Below are positions 5,771 through 26,343 of a DNA stretch of 64,000 nt, in pieces. Each line of letters begins with the position of its first letter. The first letter of the stretch is position 1. The position numbers and the translations under genes are program-made. Location of the stretch: contig JACQXX010000110.1 in assembly GCA_016208495.1 (NCBI GenBank), forward strand, positions 1-64,000, in the 5' to 3' direction. The notes below the pieces were generated by a model. The model was not told the origin of the DNA, searched no databases, and saw only the letters and a list, made by a program, of their open reading frames with translations. Source of the stretch: Acidobacteriota bacterium (lineage in GTDB: Bacteria; Acidobacteriota; Blastocatellia; Chloracidobacteriales; Chloracidobacteriaceae).

Positions 5771-6484
5771 TCAATGCTTGCCGTATTCCATGGCAACGCC
5801 TTTGCGCTGGGCCATGATGTAGGCTTCGATGGCGCGCATTTTCGGGTCATCCGCGTCAAGTTTTTTGCCCCGGGACGGGTTCTCAATGCACCAGTTGATC
5901 ATGTCGCGGAGCAGGGCCACGCGTTGGAGCTGAATCTGGTACTTGGGATAAGTCTCCGGATGGGTGTTGGCTGCGTTTGGATGGCACATCGCACAGGAGA
6001 CGCCATTGGTGCTGCCGACAAGTTTGTCATCGTGGAAAATTTGATTGCCATATTCGACTTCGCGGGCAAGTTCACGTTCCCAAACCTGACGCTCTCGGGC
6101 CGTAAACACCCCGTCCTGTTCTGACTGACTGGCCGGTGCTGCTTTTTCCGAACCTTTCTTTTGAGCCAGTGCCTCAGCCATTTCCTTTTTCCAGGCTTCG
6201 GCGACGTTGGGGTCGGTTTTGGCAAACCACATTGACATCAGTTTATTCGCTGCGGTTTGCGCCTGGTCAGGGGAAAGCCGTTCGTCGGGTTTGACCCCTT
6301 TCATTTCAAGGTTGGTTTCACCGTCGCACAACTGAATCACCAGGTTTTTGCCATCGCCAGGTGCTGGCGGATGTTGTGGAAGCGGCGCTGATTTTTGTTG
6401 AGCCTGGGCCACGCCATAAATTGTCAGTGCCGCCACCGCGACGATCAGAATGAAACTCAGTTTGAACCACTGCCGTGTTTTCAT
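5771..6484 (-). CDS. periplasmic c-type cytochrome (SoxA/TsdA-like)
   Basis: 237 residues from the ATG at 6484 (preceded by GGAG; the longer frame from 6526 starts before the ribosome site). MKTRQWFKLSFILIVAVAALTIYGVAQAQ is a signal peptide. One heme-attachment motif, CAMCH, lies in GVSCAMCHPNAANTHPETYPKYQ at about residue 170, followed by LRDMINWCIENPSRGKKLDADDPKMRAIEAYI, a helix pattern that resembles SoxA/thiosulfate dehydrogenase cytochromes. It is the last gene of a three-gene operon with a metallophosphoesterase and a di-heme peroxidase, so electron transfer in the periplasm is its likely role; its redox partner is unknown. Confidence 0.8.
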   Translation of the reverse strand: MKTRQWFKLSFILIVAVAALTIYGVAQAQQKSAPLPQHPPAPGDGKNLVIQLCDGETNLEMKGVKPDERLSPDQAQTAANKLMSMWFAKTDPNVAEAWKKEMAEALAQKKGSEKAAPASQSEQDGVFTARERQVWERELAREVEYGNQIFHDDKLVGSTNGVSCAMCHPNAANTHPETYPKYQIQLQRVALLRDMINWCIENPSRGKKLDADDPKMRAIEAYIMAQRKGVAMEYGKH

Positions 6485-18644: not shown

Positions 18645-19283
18645 TCAAACTTGCCTCACGTTCAAATCGCGTAGCGTGATCATAAATCCGTGCTTTTGCT
18701 GATTTTCAATAAAATTGATCAGCGTTTCTGATGTGACGGCCACCGTCAACATCACCAGATTGCGAGCCAGCGGATACTCACACACGTCATCCTGGGTCGC
18801 TGAAGGCACCCGATACCGTTCATTCCAGGTAATTTCCGCAAAATCAGAAGCCATTCCGGCATGAAGACAGGCCATTGCGTACGTCTCGCACGCCTGTTTG
18901 ACGGCTGCCCGTGAGAGGCTGTTGTCAAATGTATCAACCACAATCTGGCTTCCTTGCAGAAGTTTACGGGCATTTTCCGAAGTCAATCGGTCAGCAACCG
19001 AATCAAGCTGGATTCCCAGTGCCCGAAAAAGAGAATTGGCCAGGATTTTCACCTTGTGGGCGCCGATGTCGCTTCGGTAGTAAGGCTGTGACGACAAATT
19101 CCGCTCTTCGACGCGATCAAAGTCAATGACGCGAAGTTTTCGGAATCCAATCCGGGCCAGCGTTTCAATCAGGTTTGCCCCCAGTGCCCCGGCGCCACAG
19201 ACCGTGACCTGTGTTTCGCGGAGTTTGAGCAAAAGTTCCTGGGTGCGATAGAGCTGTTCGTGAAAAGTAAATGAGTGTGACAT
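18645..19283 (-). CDS. ThiF/E1-like adenylyltransferase
   Basis: 212 residues, the size of a minimal E1 adenylation domain. ATP-binding loop VTVCGAGALGANLIETLARIG and the following DFDRVEERNLSSQPYYRSDIGAHKVKILA (D-x-D-x-V-E-x-x-N-L-x-x-Q) are intact, as is VVDTFDNSLSRAAVKQAC. The zinc CxxC pairs of MoeB/ThiF are absent; a Cys in QDDVCEYPLARN is the only candidate thioester residue. Such enzymes adenylate the C-terminal glycine of a ubiquitin-like protein. The 66-residue protein at 23867-24067, ending in Gly, is a candidate partner. Last gene of the Ro60-like locus. Confidence 0.85.
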   Translation of the reverse strand: MSHSFTFHEQLYRTQELLLKLRETQVTVCGAGALGANLIETLARIGFRKLRVIDFDRVEERNLSSQPYYRSDIGAHKVKILANSLFRALGIQLDSVADRLTSENARKLLQGSQIVVDTFDNSLSRAAVKQACETYAMACLHAGMASDFAEITWNERYRVPSATQDDVCEYPLARNLVMLTVAVTSETLINFIENQQKHGFMITLRDLNVRQV

Positions 19284-19589: not shown

Positions 19590-20465
19590 TCAGTCTTCAA
19601 ACCGTTGTTCAATCACATTGACCAGTGACTGCAAATCAAAATCCCGGTCACGTCCACTTAAACAAATCCCCGAGCTCACCACCGTCAAATCGTGCTTATT
19701 GATGGCTGAGGTATGCGTTTCGCCGGATGGGGTTTGCCATTCGACCAGCCAGAATTCGTCACGGTCGGTATACTTCATCAGCTTCCCGCCACCCAGTTCC
19801 AGGGCCTGTCGCAATCGCTGGTCATTAGTGGTTGCTGGTCGCTGAACGGTACGCCTGGCGGAATCTGACCGAATCGGGGACACACCACTTCTGGCAATTT
19901 GATAGGTTTGGCGCATTTCGGGCGTCATCCCGGAAAATTTGAGTTGATCAAACCCGACCAAATTTTCAAACGCTTCTCGCATTGATTCGGCTGGGAGTGG
20001 GTCGGCTCGACGATCCAGATCTTCGTACCACCAGACCTGTCCACTGCCACGCACAATGACTGATTCAAACCGGCTGCCTTCGGTGACCAGATGGACCATC
20101 ATCGGTCGGGCGGAACCAAACCGGGCCTGCATATCAGCCCCATTGACTGGATAGGCAAGCCACGTTCTCCGATCCAGATTGGCAATCAACCGCACCCGAA
20201 GTGCCTTGAGTAATGCACAATAGCGAGCAATGACATCAAGAGAAGCTTCTTCGATCAGGTCGGCAGTATTGAGGTCTTTTGGTTGGAAAATACCCCAGCC
20301 TTCAAATGTCTTTGGCACTGGGGAAAACGTGCGAACCAGACCCTGAATCCGGGTTTGAACTTTCCCACGAAACACGCAGGGCGCCACAAACCGGGTTGTT
20401 TGTAGCGCCTGATCTGCTTCAAGCAGAGATTGAATTAACTGGTTCAGGGTGTTGCGCTGTCTCAT
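19590..20465 (-). CDS. unknown protein of the Ro60-like locus
   Basis: 291 residues, no signal peptide or membrane segment. N-terminal helix (TLNQLIQSLLEADQALQ), then a beta-rich part (RFVAPCVFRGKVQTRIQGLVRTF, GWGIFQPKD), a helical middle, and a C-terminal beta part (KLMKYTDRDEFWLVEWQTPSGETHTSAINKHDLTVVSSGICLSGRDRDFDLQSLVNVIEQRFED). I recognise no family. Its position between the vWA protein and the E1-like enzyme suggests an adaptor or conjugation factor. An E2-like role was considered because of the nearby E1, but no E2 motif is visible. Confidence 0.75.
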   Translation of the reverse strand: MRQRNTLNQLIQSLLEADQALQTTRFVAPCVFRGKVQTRIQGLVRTFSPVPKTFEGWGIFQPKDLNTADLIEEASLDVIARYCALLKALRVRLIANLDRRTWLAYPVNGADMQARFGSARPMMVHLVTEGSRFESVIVRGSGQVWWYEDLDRRADPLPAESMREAFENLVGFDQLKFSGMTPEMRQTYQIARSGVSPIRSDSARRTVQRPATTNDQRLRQALELGGGKLMKYTDRDEFWLVEWQTPSGETHTSAINKHDLTVVSSGICLSGRDRDFDLQSLVNVIEQRFED

Positions 20466-20489: not shown

Positions 20490-20577
20490 TTCATATGAAA
20501 AAGTAGTCAAGTAATTCAATCAGATGGACTTAGTGAATTACTGACTACTGACTACTGACTACTGGCTGATATAAAAA
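20490..20577. repeat. dispersed ~100-bp element with 7-bp core, inverted copy overlapping a gene end
   Basis: Read on the minus strand this is TTTTATATCAGCC, then AGTAGTC repeats, then AATTCACTAAGTCCATCTGATTGAATTACTTGACTACT. It supplies the last codons and the stop of the vWA gene ending at 20545, whose tail LYQPVVSSQ is a translation of the repeat. Confidence 0.65.
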
Positions 20578-21387
20578 ACCACGCTTGCCAAGTCGAGCAA
20601 CTGATCGAGCGACGCGTTGGCGGGGTGTTTGCAACTGTTCGGAAATCTCTCCGATCAACGCCAGTGGCGATTGAACCACTACATCCAGAACCTGCTGGTC
20701 AAACGCCAGTCCTTCAAATTCCTGCTTCAACTGGTTGATAATCACCTCAATCACTGAACCCTGGACAGTTGAGCAGGTACCACCCGTGAAGGTCGCCAGT
20801 TCGGAAAAGGCGGCCCGGGCATACACACAGCCACCCATCAACAGACCGTGAATGGTAATCATGTGGGCTTCAGCCTCAGCAGTCACTGACCGGATGGTAC
20901 TTCCACAGGGACACCCGTTTGGCCAGGCATCGCCATTCATTCTGACTGGACGGTGCTGGTGCTGCCGTCGAGGTTGTGGTTCATCCGAAGCCGGCAGGGT
21001 ATATCCATGCGGAGGCGCATCTCCGACAAGCAAAATCAATCGGTAACTGGTTGGACGCCACTTGACTTGGGTACAGGCCGCCACAACTCCGTCATAGACG
21101 GCTTCCGGGCCATCGCCACCGCCTTGCGGAGACAGTTTCTTGATGTAACTTTCAACCTGTTTGAAATCCCCAGTCGGCACAGAAACTCGCGTCACAAACG
21201 AGTTGTCCTGGGGAGGATGGTCACGATATTCAACCAGCCCACAGTGCAAATCAACCTGGGTCAGTTTGGTCAGTTGACTCAAGGCATCCAGCAAATGCTT
21301 TTGAGCCTGTTGGATAAACCCACCCATGCTGCCAGTGACATCAATCACAAAACAAAGATCCACCGAATTGAGTCCAGTTGTGTACAT
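20545..21387 (-). CDS. vWA-domain protein with winged-helix-like C-terminus
   Basis: 280 residues. The vWA metal-ion site is LCFVIDVTGSMGGFIQQAQ near the N-terminus (D-x-T-G-S), with LVEYRDHPP and SPQGGGDGPEAVYDG completing the fold. A His/Arg-rich insert with NGCPCGS (about residues 140-160) could bind metal. The C-terminal QSPLALIGEISEQLQTPRQRVARSVARLGKRGFL reads like a winged helix. The final residues derive from a repeat element. It lies 42 bases after the Ro60-like gene and probably works with it, as vWA proteins assemble multi-protein or ribonucleoprotein complexes through the metal site. Confidence 0.85.
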   Translation of the reverse strand: MYTTGLNSVDLCFVIDVTGSMGGFIQQAQKHLLDALSQLTKLTQVDLHCGLVEYRDHPPQDNSFVTRVSVPTGDFKQVESYIKKLSPQGGGDGPEAVYDGVVAACTQVKWRPTSYRLILLVGDAPPHGYTLPASDEPQPRRQHQHRPVRMNGDAWPNGCPCGSTIRSVTAEAEAHMITIHGLLMGGCVYARAAFSELATFTGGTCSTVQGSVIEVIINQLKQEFEGLAFDQQVLDVVVQSPLALIGEISEQLQTPRQRVARSVARLGKRGFLYQPVVSSQ

Positions 21388-21428: not shown

Positions 21429-23040
<1,612 letters not shown>

Positions 23041-23045
23041 TAAAA

Positions 23046-23186
23046 GGTTCTGTCCTGCACAAGTTGTAAAAGCAATTAGTGGTTACACACGGGATTTGAA
23101 CCCGCTACCCTCTGTTCCAAAAACAGATGCTCTACCCAGTTGAGCTAGTGTATGTATGCTTTAACGGTTTGAGTGCAGGACAGAAA
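23046..23186 (-). ncRNA. tRNA-like Y-RNA candidate 1 (UUG loop)
   Basis: Read on the minus strand. Ends pair perfectly over 13 bp (23173-23185 with 23048-23060). Then comes an internal loop (CTCAAACCG opposite ACAACTTG), a second stem (AAAGCA/TGCTTT), and a cloverleaf at 23152-23084: 5-bp stem TACAC/GTGTA, T-A linker, D arm GCTC-AACTGGGTA-GAGC, anticodon arm TCTGT-TTTTGGA-ACAGA (TTG at positions 34-36, + strand 23118-23120), 5-base variable loop, T arm GCGGG-TTCAAAT-CCCGT. It is not a working tRNA because the acceptor is short and merges into the long stem. It matches a bacterial Y RNA: tRNA mimic plus Ro60-binding stem. Confidence 0.82.
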
Positions 23187-23197
23187 AAATTATGAAT

Positions 23198-23313
23198 TAA
23201 GTACCTTACCGAAAATTTCCAGACATTTTGAACCACGAAACACACGAAATACACGAAAAAAATCAAACACTTACCAAATCCAATATCTCAGAAAACTTAT
23301 GACAAGGTACTTA
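23198..23313. mobile_element. MITE-like element, copy 3 (inverted), inside the tRNA-like RNA array
   Basis: 116 bp with ends TAAGTACCTT/AAGGTACTTA, interior reverse complement of copies 1 and 2 (CAGACATTTTGAACCACG, CACGAAA repeats, CCAATATCTCAG). It separates tRNA-like RNAs 1 and 2. TGAAT flanks both sides, but this may be chance in local TGAATTA repeats. Confidence 0.85.
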
Positions 23314-23425
23314 TGAATTATGAATTATGAAAAACTGGCTCTGGTTTGGTTGCCTGTGAGTATTCCCCCACCATATGACTGGTCTCCAGAGAGATATTTT
23401 TCTTCATTCTTCGTTCGTTTTTAAA

Positions 23426-23565
23426 GGTTCTGTCCTGTACGAGTTGCAAAAGCTGTTTTGGGTTACACATTGGATTCGAACCAATGAATGTCTGCTTATG
23501 AGGCAGGTGCTCTACCACTGAGCGAGTGTATGTAAGCTTTTTCTGTCGGAGTACAGGACAGAACT
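23426..23565 (-). ncRNA. tRNA-like Y-RNA candidate 2 (CAU loop)
   Basis: Same design as candidate 1. A perfect 14-bp closing stem (23551-23564 with 23427-23440), an internal loop CTCCGACAG opposite GCAACTCG, a second stem AAAAGCT/AGCTTTT, and a cloverleaf at 23530-23464: TACAC/GTGTA, D arm GCTC-AGTGGTA-GAGC, anticodon arm CCTGC-CTCATAA-GCAGA (CAT, + strand 23498-23500), T arm ATTGG-TTCGAAT-CCAAT. The closing stem and internal loop are shared with candidate 1 while the cloverleaf differs, as expected if one part binds a common protein and the other specifies a function. The loop UCCGA/CAACU resembles the Ro-binding site of animal Y RNAs as I remember it. Confidence 0.82.
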
Positions 23566-23627
23566 CAATTTTCAAAAAAAACAAAAAAGGAATTGTAAAT
23601 CGCTAACCCTTTGAAAATAATGCTTTA

Positions 23628-23674
23628 CTGACTACTGACTACTGACTACTGACTACTGACTACTGACTACTGAC
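23628..23674. repeat. 7-bp tandem array (CTGACTA)
   Basis: CTGACTA is repeated about seven times without interruption, the longest heptamer array in the window, directly between tRNA-like RNAs 2 and 3. Confidence 0.9.
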
Positions 23675-23680
23675 TTGTGA

Positions 23681-23858
23681 TTGATCATCTCCGCGCAAGT
23701 TACTGAAGCGGTTGTCACTACGTTCAGTGTGTATCCATTTCACCACAAACCCAAATGGTGGATTTGACAGGAGTCGAACCTGCAGAGCCCGTGAGGGCCG
23801 CTGAATTAAATTGAGTGTGTATGCTTCACCGGTCAGAGCGCAGAGATGAAAAGATCAA
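23681..23858 (-). ncRNA. tRNA-like Y-RNA candidate 3: circularly permuted class II cloverleaf
   Basis: Minus strand, closing stem 23838-23848/23686-23696 (11 bp, one G-U) plus TTGATC/GATCAA, internal loop CTCTGACCGG opposite GTAACTTG (as in candidates 1 and 2), then TGAAGC/GCTTCA and CACT/AGTG. The cloverleaf is in permuted order: anticodon 3' strand TTCAG (23805-23801), long variable arm with GCCC-TCAC-GGGC, T arm GCAGG-TTCGACT-CCTGT, acceptor CAAATCC, ACCA, a 3-base loop TTT, acceptor GGGTTTG (7 bp, one G-U), TG, D arm GTG-AAATGGATA-CAC, A, anticodon 5' strand CTGAA (23727-23723). All segments abut exactly. The anticodon loop is replaced by the long stem. Confidence 0.82.
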
Positions 23859-23866
23859 ATGTTCAT

Positions 23867-24067
23867 TTATCCATAGACGGCTTCGGGGCGAATGATCACC
23901 GTGCCGTTGGCTGTTCGATCCACAACGTAGTTCTTGAGTCGCTCTGGGGCAACATTGAGCAGTGTCGCAACCCGGCGTAAAACATCAGCGTCGGCTGTGG
24001 TCGGTCGGATATTGGCCGCCTGCGGCTGGAAATCATAGGACCGTCCTTCAAATCGAATGTGTACCAT
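23867..24067 (-). CDS. small ubiquitin-like (beta-grasp) candidate ending in Gly
   Basis: 66 residues from ATG 24067, with ribosome site AAAGGAG 9 bases upstream. Predicted order strand-strand-helix-strand: MVHIRFEGRSYDF, a second strand, helix DADVLRRVATLLNVAPERLKNYVV, strand GTVIIRPEAVYG. The protein ends in Tyr-Gly, so its C-terminus could be adenylated by the E1-like enzyme at 18645-19283. This resembles small Ubl partners of ThiF enzymes in bacteria, but sequence identity to a named family is not evident to me. It lies just upstream of the tRNA-like RNA array on the same strand. Confidence 0.6.
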   Translation of the reverse strand: MVHIRFEGRSYDFQPQAANIRPTTADADVLRRVATLLNVAPERLKNYVVDRTANGTVIIRPEAVYG

Positions 24068-24524
24068 ACGGTGGGTGCTCCTTTGGAATCGGTTCGATCA
24101 GCACTGAGCGGCTGTTCTCTGACTGTGAGTAATGGCATTCTGTGTGCCAGTTCCAGCGACGAACTTATAGATTTTTTATAAAATATTGAAAATACAGGGG
24201 TAATTTTTTTTCTTAGGTTTTGCTTGCGATATTCTTTGTTGCTTAAAGTAAGAGTTCTTTAGAAAATCAGATAGTTTTCTTTGAATTTTGTCGAGTACTG
24301 ATTTGATTCTTTCAACTCTGACTTGATTGGAATATTCGCAACCCATTGTTCGAAACTGGGAAACTGACGTGTCAGGAGCGAACACGGAATAAAGCAGCGT
24401 TACTGCCGCTTTCATAAGAAGAAATGATATAACCCATTCAATTACAGTAATTTAAACTCATTATTCTTCGTTTTTTATCCATTGGCACATCACTTGCACT
24501 TCTGAGTTGGTTTCAACGTCATTT
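24068..24524. other. intergenic; likely promoter region of the Ro60-like locus
   Basis: About 460 bases, strongly AT-rich from 24170. A 79-codon minus-strand frame at 24176-24415 has no ribosome site and a basic, low-complexity end, so I do not call it. Promoters for the minus-strand locus must lie near 24080-24180. Confidence 0.4.
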
Positions 24525-24624
24525 TTATCCCAGTCAGTAGTCAGTAGTCAGTAGTTCACTCAGTTTATTTGATTGAATCGCTTGACTGTTTTCTAATGCA
24601 AGGATTCCATTCTAAGTGGGTATA
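24525..24624. repeat. dispersed ~100-bp element with 7-bp core, copy
   Basis: Starts TTATCCCAGTCAGT, carries three AGTCAGT units (24531-24555), then TTCACTCAGTTTATTTGATTGAATCGCTTGACTG, and ends AGTGGGTATAA. The ends TTATCCCA/TGGGTATAA are inverted repeats. It lies immediately before the S41-like gene and may carry its promoter. Confidence 0.7.
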
Positions 24625-24636
24625 AGGAATGAACAT

Positions 24637-26343
24637 ATGAGGTATTCAAAACTTTTGTTTGGGTCGGTGTGTATCGGCATTTTGGCCAGCTTGCTCAGTT
24701 GTACACTTTCCCCGCAACTCCAATCTGCAAGTGCCAAAGCCCAGTCACAGAACGTCAATCGGGTTACCATCAAGGAAGCCCAGGCGCTTTTTGCCAGACA
24801 GGAATGGGCTCAAACCGCTGTGGTCTGTGAGGAACTGGTCAAGACCAATCCCTATAATGGAGCGATTTGGGACATGCTTGGGTTTGCCCATCATCAACTC
24901 AAGCACTTTGACCAGGCCATCCCGGCATTTCAAAAGGCGGCGGAATGCGGCACCAAGCCTGCAACCCAGTTTTATAATATTGCCTGTGGCTATGCGTTGA
25001 AGGGCGAGAAAGAACAGGCCATGGCCTGGCTTGAAAAGGCAATGAAGACCCGCTTTTCAGATTTTGAAACACTTCGCAATGATTCCGATATTGACAGCCT
25101 GCGCAATGACCCACGTTTTAAAAAAATGATTGGGGAAAAGCCTGAAGGGTCATTCACTCGCGACGAGCAATGGCGCTATGACCTGCACTATCTGGCAAGT
25201 GAATTCAAACGATTACATTACAATGTCTACAACAAACTGGATCAGGCCCGGTTTGAAGCCACCCTGGCTGACATTGATCGCAAAATTCCAACTTTGAAAG
25301 ATCATCAGATTATCGTCGAACTGGTGTGCCTGACGGCTGCGATTGGCGATGGACACACTTTCTTTATGCCTCCAACCAGTGGTCCGGGCGAGTTTCACAA
25401 AATCCCGATTCAATTTACCGAATTCAAAGAAGGGATTTTTGTCACCGGAGCGGTTGAAGAATATAAAGCCGCGCTTGGCATGAAGCTGATCAAAATTGGA
25501 AAAACCTCCGTCGAACAGGCATATCGGGCAATCGCTAAAACGGTTTCCCGCGATAACGACATCTGGTTGCGAACGCAAGTCCCCCGCCGGTTTGCGGTTC
25601 CAGAATATGTGCAGGCATTTGGAATGATTCCAACTCTTGACGAGGTCCCCTATGTGCTGGCTGATGCAAGTGGCAAGGAAGTGACGATCTCGCCCAAACC
25701 ACGACCGTTTTTGGAGAAAGTCGAACTGATTTCTGTTCGTCCGAGTGGGCCAGAGGTCACGCCCCTCTACCTGAAAAATCAGGAGGATCTGTACTGGTAC
25801 GAATACCTGAAAGACTCAAAAACTGTCTTTTTTCAATACAATGGAGTTCAAAACAAACCCGATGAGTCAATTGCGGCCTTTGTGAAGAAGATGTTTGCAT
25901 TTATCAATGCCAACGAGGTGGAACGGCTCATCATTGACCTTCGGTGGAATGGCGGCGGCAATAACTTTCTCAACAAACCGCTGGTTCAGGAAATCATCCG
26001 ATGTGACAAAATCAATCAACCGGGCAAACTGTTTGTGATCATGGGGCGCAATACGTTTTCAGCCGCGATTTGTGGTGCTTCGGATTTGCAACAACAAACC
26101 CAGGCCATGTTTGTGGGCGAACCCTCAGCCTCACCGCCAAACTTTATTGGTGAGACCATTTTTACCACCCTGCCATTCTGCAAATTGCGGGCGAGCATTT
26201 CCACACTCTACTGGCAAAATGCGCCTGCGATGGATTACCGAATGTGGATTGCTCCGGATCTGGCTGCCGAACCGACCTACGAAGCTTTTGTCGCCAATCG
26301 CGATCTGGCGCTCGAAGCCATCTTCAGCTATGGGAAGGAATGA
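24637..26343 (+). CDS. lipoprotein with TPRs and S41-type (tail-specific protease-like) domain
   Basis: 568 residues from ATG 24637. Lipoprotein signal with lipobox LLSC. TPR-like helices at about residues 45-170 (AQTAVVCEELVKTNPYNGAIWDMLGFAHHQLKHFDQAIPAFQKAAE). From about 200 a protease-like part: IGDGHTFFMPP, LIIDLRWNGGGNNFLNKPLVQEI (substrate-strand region of S41), and GRNTFSAAICGASDLQ, where Ser fits the S41 nucleophile. The usual catalytic Lys is replaced or shifted (QQTQAMFVGEP), so activity is uncertain. Anchored in the cell envelope. Confidence 0.85.
   Translation: MRYSKLLFGSVCIGILASLLSCTLSPQLQSASAKAQSQNVNRVTIKEAQALFARQEWAQTAVVCEELVKTNPYNGAIWDMLGFAHHQLKHFDQAIPAFQKAAECGTKPATQFYNIACGYALKGEKEQAMAWLEKAMKTRFSDFETLRNDSDIDSLRNDPRFKKMIGEKPEGSFTRDEQWRYDLHYLASEFKRLHYNVYNKLDQARFEATLADIDRKIPTLKDHQIIVELVCLTAAIGDGHTFFMPPTSGPGEFHKIPIQFTEFKEGIFVTGAVEEYKAALGMKLIKIGKTSVEQAYRAIAKTVSRDNDIWLRTQVPRRFAVPEYVQAFGMIPTLDEVPYVLADASGKEVTISPKPRPFLEKVELISVRPSGPEVTPLYLKNQEDLYWYEYLKDSKTVFFQYNGVQNKPDESIAAFVKKMFAFINANEVERLIIDLRWNGGGNNFLNKPLVQEIIRCDKINQPGKLFVIMGRNTFSAAICGASDLQQQTQAMFVGEPSASPPNFIGETIFTTLPFCKLRASISTLYWQNAPAMDYRMWIAPDLAAEPTYEAFVANRDLALEAIFSYGKE

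What the first reader, a model, noticed from the sequence alone, without database searches (positions are those of the whole stretch)
23046..23565. Two tRNA-like RNAs share a closing stem but carry different cloverleafs
Candidates 1 and 2 have 13- and 14-bp perfect closing stems with nearly the same sequence, a shared internal loop, and different anticodon loops (TTG and CAT) and T arms. A common binding handle with variable tRNA mimics would let one Ro60-like ring use different effectors. The acceptor stem is too short and is continued by the long stem, so they cannot be ordinary tRNAs.
Basis: partly seen in the sequence, partly recalled or inferred. Interest (0 to 1): 0.82.

Follow-up and report, generated by a model that had tools for sequence, protein, structure and literature searches.

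The report
Ro60-bound RNAs posing as tRNAs
Next to a gene for a ring-shaped RNA-binding protein (a distant Ro60), this bacterium encodes three small RNAs that share one stem handle but display different tRNA look-alikes, and related bacteria hang ribosome look-alikes on the same handle beside spare tRNA gene sets, which suggests bait or adaptor RNAs for stress on protein synthesis.

Summary
On the minus strand, RNA1 (23048-23185) and RNA2 (23427-23564) have perfect 13- and 14-bp closing stems, a shared internal loop, an inner stem and then a tRNA cloverleaf. A third RNA (23685-23849), outside the given coordinates, has the same handle but a circularly permuted tRNA. They lie directly upstream of a Ro60-fold protein (21429-22877). 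The handle recurs beside this protein in Acidobacteriota, cyanobacteria, plasmids and a 595-kb phage: 153 hits on the coding strand against 3 on the other. Covariation is strong, with 26 of 35 pairs compensated. Thirty-nine cloverleaf copies carry 21 different anticodons, so they are neither Gln- nor Met-specific. In relatives the same handle also carries lone anticodon arms, 23S H69-H71, and the sarcin-ricin loop joined to the GTPase-associated centre. In 15 of about 40 loci an array of 24-40 tRNA genes lies upstream. In cyanobacteria these units carry sites like those of TrcR, the translational-stress repressor. These are Ro60 Y RNAs of a new variant. My best guess is bait or sensor RNAs for agents damaging tRNA or ribosomes; the main rival is an enzyme tether.

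The parts
23048..23185 (-). RNA1: Ro handle (outer stem 23048-23060 with 23173-23185) presenting a full tRNA cloverleaf (23081-23155, anticodon UUG)
23427..23564 (-). RNA2: same handle (outer stem 23427-23440 with 23551-23564) presenting a full tRNA cloverleaf (23460-23532, anticodon CAU)
23685..23849 (-). RNA3: same handle (12-bp outer stem) presenting a permuted class II tRNA-like module: variable arm, T arm (23768-23782), acceptor strands AAAUCC/GGGUUU closed by a loop, D arm; no anticodon arm
   Evidence: topology read from the sequence and compared with YrlA
21429..22877 (-). Ro60-like ring protein (HEAT-like helices + vWA with DxSxS), 482 aa
23867..24067 (-). 66-aa conserved small protein upstream of the RNAs, possibly ubiquitin-like (inferred from pairing with ThiF)
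   Evidence: homologs upstream of Ro in most loci; no Pfam/NCBIfam hit
20545..21387 (-). second vWA protein with a winged-helix-like C-terminus
19590..20465 (-). conserved 291-aa protein of unknown family, part of the locus in most relatives
18645..19283 (-). ThiF/E1-like adenylyltransferase, part of the locus in most relatives

Best explanation
The three RNAs are Y RNAs of the adjacent Ro60-like ring. The paired 5' and 3' ends, with their conserved internal loops and inner stem, form a standard handle that the ring holds. The distal part is an exchangeable mimic of a translation RNA. RNA1 and RNA2 show the anticodon, D and T side of a tRNA, with the handle replacing the acceptor. RNA3 shows the acceptor, T and D side, with the handle replacing the anticodon arm. 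I think the mimics most likely act as bait: they bind, or are cut by, agents that attack tRNA and ribosomes (anticodon nucleases, ribotoxins). The Ro ring and its partner proteins thereby sense or sequester such agents. In many relatives a linked tRNA array supplies replacement tRNAs. Shown here: anatomy, conservation, covariation, linkage, the Ro fold, and stress-operator-like sites in cyanobacteria. Inferred: Ro binding, transcription as separate RNAs, and the bait function.
For: RNAs lie beside a Ro60-fold protein and high-scoring copies occur only in genomes with that protein: 8 hits of at least 100 bits in 6 of 7 Ro-positive genomes, with everything else at or below 58.6 bits, including all Ro-negative genomes. 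Covariation: 96.1% of cells paired, 166 compensated cells against 43.5 in shuffles and 14-24 when slid. Modules vary while the handle stays: 21 anticodons in 39 copies; lone anticodon arms; 23S H69-H71, and sarcin-ricin loop plus GTPase-associated centre. Several of these are sites that nucleases and ribotoxins are known to attack (general knowledge). tRNA arrays upstream on the same strand in 15 loci. TrcR-type sites (TGTAGTAT) within 400 nt upstream of 10 of 11 arrays and within 500 nt of 14 of 30 small-ORF/Ro units, against 4-5% in random windows. In Anabaena the trn array, rtcB and an HNH gene are TrcR-repressed and induced by translational stress (PMC10272220). Present on plasmids and a huge phage.
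Against: No expression, binding or cleavage data. The GTPase-associated centre and H69 are also binding sites for translation factors, so factor capture would explain them too. Known bacterial Y RNAs act as gates and tethers. The window's own locus has no tRNA array and no TrcR-like site, and no rRNA mimic was detected in it.
Confidence: 0.5

Rival explanations
1. Adaptor/tether model: the tRNA-like and rRNA-like modules recruit enzymes that normally act on tRNA or rRNA (PNPase, modification, CCA-adding or repair enzymes) to the Ro ring, as Y RNA tethers Rsr to PNPase in Deinococcus; different modules recruit different enzymes.
For: Published precedent for the Y RNA tether and for tRNA-enzyme recognition of YrlA (PMC8394870, PMC7790460). 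Modules keep native tRNA core features (D/T loops, 7-nt anticodon loop with U33).
Against: A tether needs one good mimic, not many anticodons, lone anticodon arms, the sarcin-ricin loop and the GTPase-associated centre; linkage to spare tRNA sets points to damage.
Confidence: 0.3
2. Factor-capture model: the mimics titrate translation factors or synthetases (translational GTPases on sarcin-ricin loop plus GTPase-associated centre, tRNA-binding proteins on cloverleaves) to slow translation under stress.
For: One relative RNA joins exactly the two 23S elements that form the GTPase factor-binding site; H69 is another factor and tRNA contact (general knowledge).
Against: Does not explain lone anticodon arms or anticodon turnover; low-copy RNAs would have to compete with ribosomes.
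Confidence: 0.13
3. Ordinary or suppressor tRNA genes with unusual precursor stems.
For: ARAGORN and Rfam tRNA score them; ARAGORN names a Nostoc array copy tRNA-Pyl(cta).
Against: 5-bp acceptor, no CCA, among the three lowest of 45 Rfam tRNA scores in the genome; genome has its own Gln(UUG) and Met tRNAs; the handle itself covaries; same handle on non-tRNA modules.
Confidence: 0.02

Closest known systems
YrlA, the tRNA-like bacterial Y RNA (Rfam RF02553; Salmonella and others)
   Same: Encoded beside Ro60; paired ends form a long stem; tRNA-like module; 3' loop ACUUG before the outer helix; RNA3 and relatives share its order T arm - closed acceptor - D arm
   Different: RNA1/RNA2 present the opposite half of tRNA with a full anticodon arm; 5' loop CCYNAC and a UACAUAC segment not in the YrlA consensus; score below Rfam threshold (36 against 69 bits in relatives, none in the window)
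Ro60 / Rsr RNPs (vertebrate Ro60, Deinococcus Rsr, Thermus phage phiLo Ro60)
   Same: Full-length fold match, Z 18-22
   Different: 14-17% identity, not recognised by Pfam TROVE; locus with ThiF, a small conserved protein and, in relatives, tRNA arrays rather than rtcBA
Silent plasmid tRNA arrays of cyanobacteria (Anabaena trn operon, TrcR regulon)
   Same: HNH gene, 20 or more tRNAs in conserved order and TrcR-type sites upstream; two Nostoc arrays contain a handle RNA
   Different: Papers found do not mention Ro60 or Y RNAs with these arrays; the window itself lacks the array
Circularly permuted tRNA genes (algae, archaea)
   Same: RNA3 carries tRNA parts in permuted order
   Different: Not matured to tRNA as far as sequence tells; ends pair into a Ro handle (comparison from general knowledge)

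Membership tests
Bacterial Y RNA (Ro60-associated) | Encoded next to a Ro60 ortholog | tested here: met
   Ro60-fold gene 170 nt downstream of RNA1; linkage kept in relatives
Bacterial Y RNA (Ro60-associated) | 5' and 3' ends pair into a long stem with a conserved handle | tested here: met
Bacterial Y RNA (Ro60-associated) | Physical binding by Ro60 | not testable with these tools
   needs EMSA or pull-down
YrlA (RF02553) | Rfam gathering score of 69 bits | tested here: not met
   No YrlA hit in window 22900-23900 up to E 10; relatives reach 36.2 bits
YrlA (RF02553) | Module order T arm - acceptor closed by loop - D arm, handle in place of anticodon arm | tested here: met
   RNA3 and class B relatives by sequence and model alignment; RNA1 and RNA2 do not have it
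Ro60/TROVE protein | HEAT-like ring plus vWA fold | tested here: met
   AF2 model pLDDT 83; the ten best PDB matches, Z 18.2-22.5, are all Ro60/TROVE
Ro60/TROVE protein | Pfam TROVE (PF05731) match | tested here: not met
   No TROVE hit at E<=1 for the window protein or 16 relatives; Pfam vWA_Ro60 in 4 of 17
Functional tRNA | 7-bp acceptor with discriminator and CCA site | tested here: not met
   5-bp acceptor, flanked by mismatches and handle
Functional tRNA | Cloverleaf core (D, anticodon, T arms) | tested here: met
TrcR-regulated tRNA-array unit | Array and TGTAGTAT sites upstream | tested here: not met
   Met in cyanobacterial relatives, but the window has neither

The most novel reading that the evidence does not exclude
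A previously undescribed Ro60 system in which one RNA handle presents a kit of mimics of the translation machinery (both halves of tRNA, lone anticodon arms, 23S H69-H71, sarcin-ricin loop plus GTPase-associated centre), linked to a spare tRNA set and switched on by translational stress: an RNA bait system against tRNA- and ribosome-damaging agents.
Probability: 0.5. Interest if true: 0.94.

Novelty: new variant of a known kind. Interest (0 to 1): 0.86.

Why it matters
What bacterial Ro60 and its tRNA-mimicking Y RNAs are for is a long-standing open question. Here the RNAs come as a kit whose modules name their likely targets, linked in relatives to spare tRNA genes and sites for a stress repressor with known inducers, so the question can be tested in cyanobacteria that grow in the laboratory. 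It also explains some odd 'tRNA-Gln', 'tRNA-Pyl' or partial-rRNA annotations as Ro-associated mimics.

Tried and rejected
Ordinary tRNA genes: rejected (acceptor, scores, anticodon turnover, host tRNAs present). Derived from host tRNA-Gln or tRNA-Met: rejected, closest host tRNAs are Val and Arg at 70-76%. Known Rfam family: only tRNA at threshold in the window, YrlA below threshold in relatives. Class D inserts (GGUGC-hairpin-UGCRAGCCUGA..AGCAGGC): no convincing Rfam hit and no blastn match to 23S/16S at E 0.01; a resemblance to rRNA pieces by eye was not accepted. Hits of the sarcin-ricin RNA to Allocoleopsis and Fischerella plasmids are true rRNA operons, not mimics. No homolog found in IMG/VR viral contigs with the peptide patterns used. 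Sigma-70 promoter and terminator scans of the region were at chance level.

Full report
OBSERVATION. Both RNAs lie on the minus strand. ARAGORN finds tRNA-Gln(ttg) at 23081-23155 and tRNA-Met(cat) at 23460-23532, and Rfam's tRNA model scores them 49.6 and 48.5 bits, among the three lowest of 45 tRNA matches in the genome. Around them are perfect 13- and 14-bp stems, folding z-scores -4.3 and -4.8. The order inward is: outer stem, internal loop (5' UCCGAC or UCAAAC, 3' ACUC or ACUU), 7-bp inner stem, a second loop containing UACAUAC, then a cloverleaf whose acceptor is only 5 bp. A repeat search shows a third copy of the 5' half of the handle. It belongs to RNA3 at 23685-23849, outside the given coordinates.

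RNA3. Its insert reads: variable arm, T arm CAGGUUCGACUCCUG, AAAUCC, loop, GGGUUU, then a D-arm-like GUGGUGAAAUGGAUACAC. This is a tRNA in circularly permuted order, with the acceptor closed by a loop and the handle where the anticodon arm would be. The Rfam YrlA model has the same order; it even matches junctions between neighbouring tRNA genes, and it scores two RNAs of this permuted kind in relatives at 34-36 bits, below its threshold of 69. RNA1 and RNA2 show the other half of tRNA. The three RNAs of the window thus present complementary sides of a tRNA.

PROTEIN AND OPERON. The gene downstream (21429-22877, 482 aa) is not recognised by Pfam TROVE. Sequence search finds TROVE proteins in the PDB at E 3.5e-4, and Pfam vWA_Ro60 in 4 of 17 family members. 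A model from an alignment of 16 homologs (pLDDT 83) matches Ro60 along its whole length: Foldseek E 1e-11, and the ten PDB entries with Z 18.2-22.5 are all Ro60/TROVE. The same strand carries a 66-aa conserved protein, the RNAs, Ro, a second vWA protein, a 291-aa protein and a ThiF-like enzyme. The 66-aa, 291-aa and ThiF genes recur beside Ro in most relatives.

CONSERVATION. Homologs of the Ro-like protein occur in 7 of 39 close relatives, the window's genome counted, 6 of 396 Acidobacteriota sampled, 39 of 388 genomes of the class of a cyanobacterial homolog, a Melainabacteria MAG, cyanobacterial plasmids and a 595-kb phage. A simple handle scan upstream of Ro gives 69 hits on the coding strand and none on the other; a broader scan of whole loci gives 153 against 3. 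In 30 aligned cloverleaf RNAs, 96.1% of pair cells are standard pairs, 26 of 35 pairs are compensated, and 166 cells have double changes against 43.5 in shuffles and 14-24 when slid. A covariance model finds copies of 100 bits or more only in genomes with the Ro-like gene; all other hits in 39 relatives score 58.6 bits or less. The model was built from some of these sequences, so the gap, not the E-value, is the evidence.

MODULES DIFFER. Thirty-nine cloverleaf copies carry 21 different anticodons, while the 7-nt loop with U33 is nearly always kept. Other inserts on the same handle are: lone anticodon stem-loops such as CUUC-CUGUUAA-GAAG; permuted tRNAs; a permuted piece of 23S H69-H71 (AUAACGGUCCUAAGGUAGC; blastn E down to 1e-8); and an RNA joining the sarcin-ricin loop (AGUACGAGAGGA, invariant in 12 of 12) to the GTPase-associated centre. 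The last passes Rfam's LSU threshold in one locus (52.7 against 50 bits) and has 20 compensated pairs. It occurs in cyanobacteria and in the window's own family (L119). Shuffled inserts gave 4 matches in 765 at E 0.01. One further insert class remains unidentified. The window itself has only tRNA-type modules.

LINK TO SPARE tRNAs AND STRESS. In 15 of about 40 loci an array of 24-40 tRNA genes lies upstream on the same strand, none downstream. Such arrays in Anabaena are silent until translation is stressed, and are repressed by TrcR together with rtcB and an HNH gene (PMC10272220). The site TGTAGTAT lies within 400 nt upstream of 10 of 11 cyanobacterial arrays, within 500 nt upstream of 14 of 30 small-ORF/Ro units and within 60 nt of 3 of 10 sarcin-ricin RNAs, against 4.7, 4.3 and 0.8% of random windows. 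Two Nostoc arrays contain a handle RNA, which ARAGORN calls tRNA-Pyl(cta) in the one listed. The window's locus has neither array nor site, so for it this link is by homology only.

WHAT IT IS NOT. The genome has its own Gln(UUG), Gln(CUG) and Met(CAU) tRNAs; the nearest host tRNAs to RNA1 and RNA2 are Val and Arg. No CCA, no 7-bp acceptor. They are not ordinary tRNAs.

MECHANISM. Shown: architecture, conservation, covariation, linkage, fold. Inferred: the ring holds the handle; the module is displayed; the modules are bait for agents that damage tRNA or ribosomes. The list of modules reads like a list of sites attacked by nucleases and ribotoxins (general knowledge), and spare tRNAs under a translation-stress repressor fit replacement after damage. 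The tether model known from Deinococcus (PMC7790460, PMC8394870) and capture of translation factors remain open.

NOVELTY. tRNA-mimicking Y RNAs are known; a review describes D, T and acceptor arms. A full cloverleaf with an anticodon arm, several different mimics per locus, rRNA mimics on the same handle, and the tie to tRNA arrays were not found in the papers searchable here, which exclude most subscription journals. Hence a new variant of a known kind.

Noticed in passing
L085, L086, L088, L089, L092, L097 (around 6111-6166, minus strand), L100, L102, L111, L115, L119, L108: Handle RNA that joins the 23S sarcin-ricin loop to the GTPase-associated centre; in most cyanobacterial loci it lies downstream of the Ro-like gene.
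   Followed up: partly
L094, L097, L100, L107, L108, L109, L110, L113, L114 upstream of Ro: Handle RNA with a permuted 23S H69-H71 piece, the handle taking the place of the H69 loop.
   Followed up: partly
L084, L085, L087, L088, L089, L092, L096, L098, L108, L120 upstream of Ro: A further conserved handle insert (GGUGC-hairpin-UGCRAGCCUGA..AGCAGGC) that no Rfam family or rRNA match explains.
   Followed up: partly
L140:6163-6234; L141:10269-10392: Handle RNA embedded in the tRNA arrays of Nostoc plasmids; ARAGORN calls the L140 copy tRNA-Pyl(cta). No Ro-like gene was annotated nearby.
   Followed up: partly
L049 (LR756511.1, 595-kb phage): A huge phage carries the Ro-like gene, handle RNAs, the small conserved protein, the 291-aa protein and ThiF.
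   Followed up: partly
L012:2737-3405: A 222-aa ORF resembling endonuclease V (from memory, not tested) in the array-Ro interval of the nearest relative.
   Followed up: no
window 24483-24498: Perfect sigma-54-type promoter TGGCACATCACTTGCA on the plus strand, upstream of the divergent TPR/S41-peptidase gene 24616-26343.
   Followed up: no
window 23626-23680, also near 20540-20560 and 24520-24550: Tandem TACTGAC/GTCAGTA heptamer repeats in several intergenic regions.
   Followed up: no
L037 (G000:C68:10160-10680): Four 72-nt tRNA-like genes (acc, gct, atc, cca) packed in tandem in the window's genome, unlike its other tRNAs.
   Followed up: no
L144:5001-5045: A 45-nt 3' piece of the sarcin-ricin handle RNA (98% identical) in front of an endonuclease/exonuclease/phosphatase gene on a Planktothrix plasmid.
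   Followed up: no
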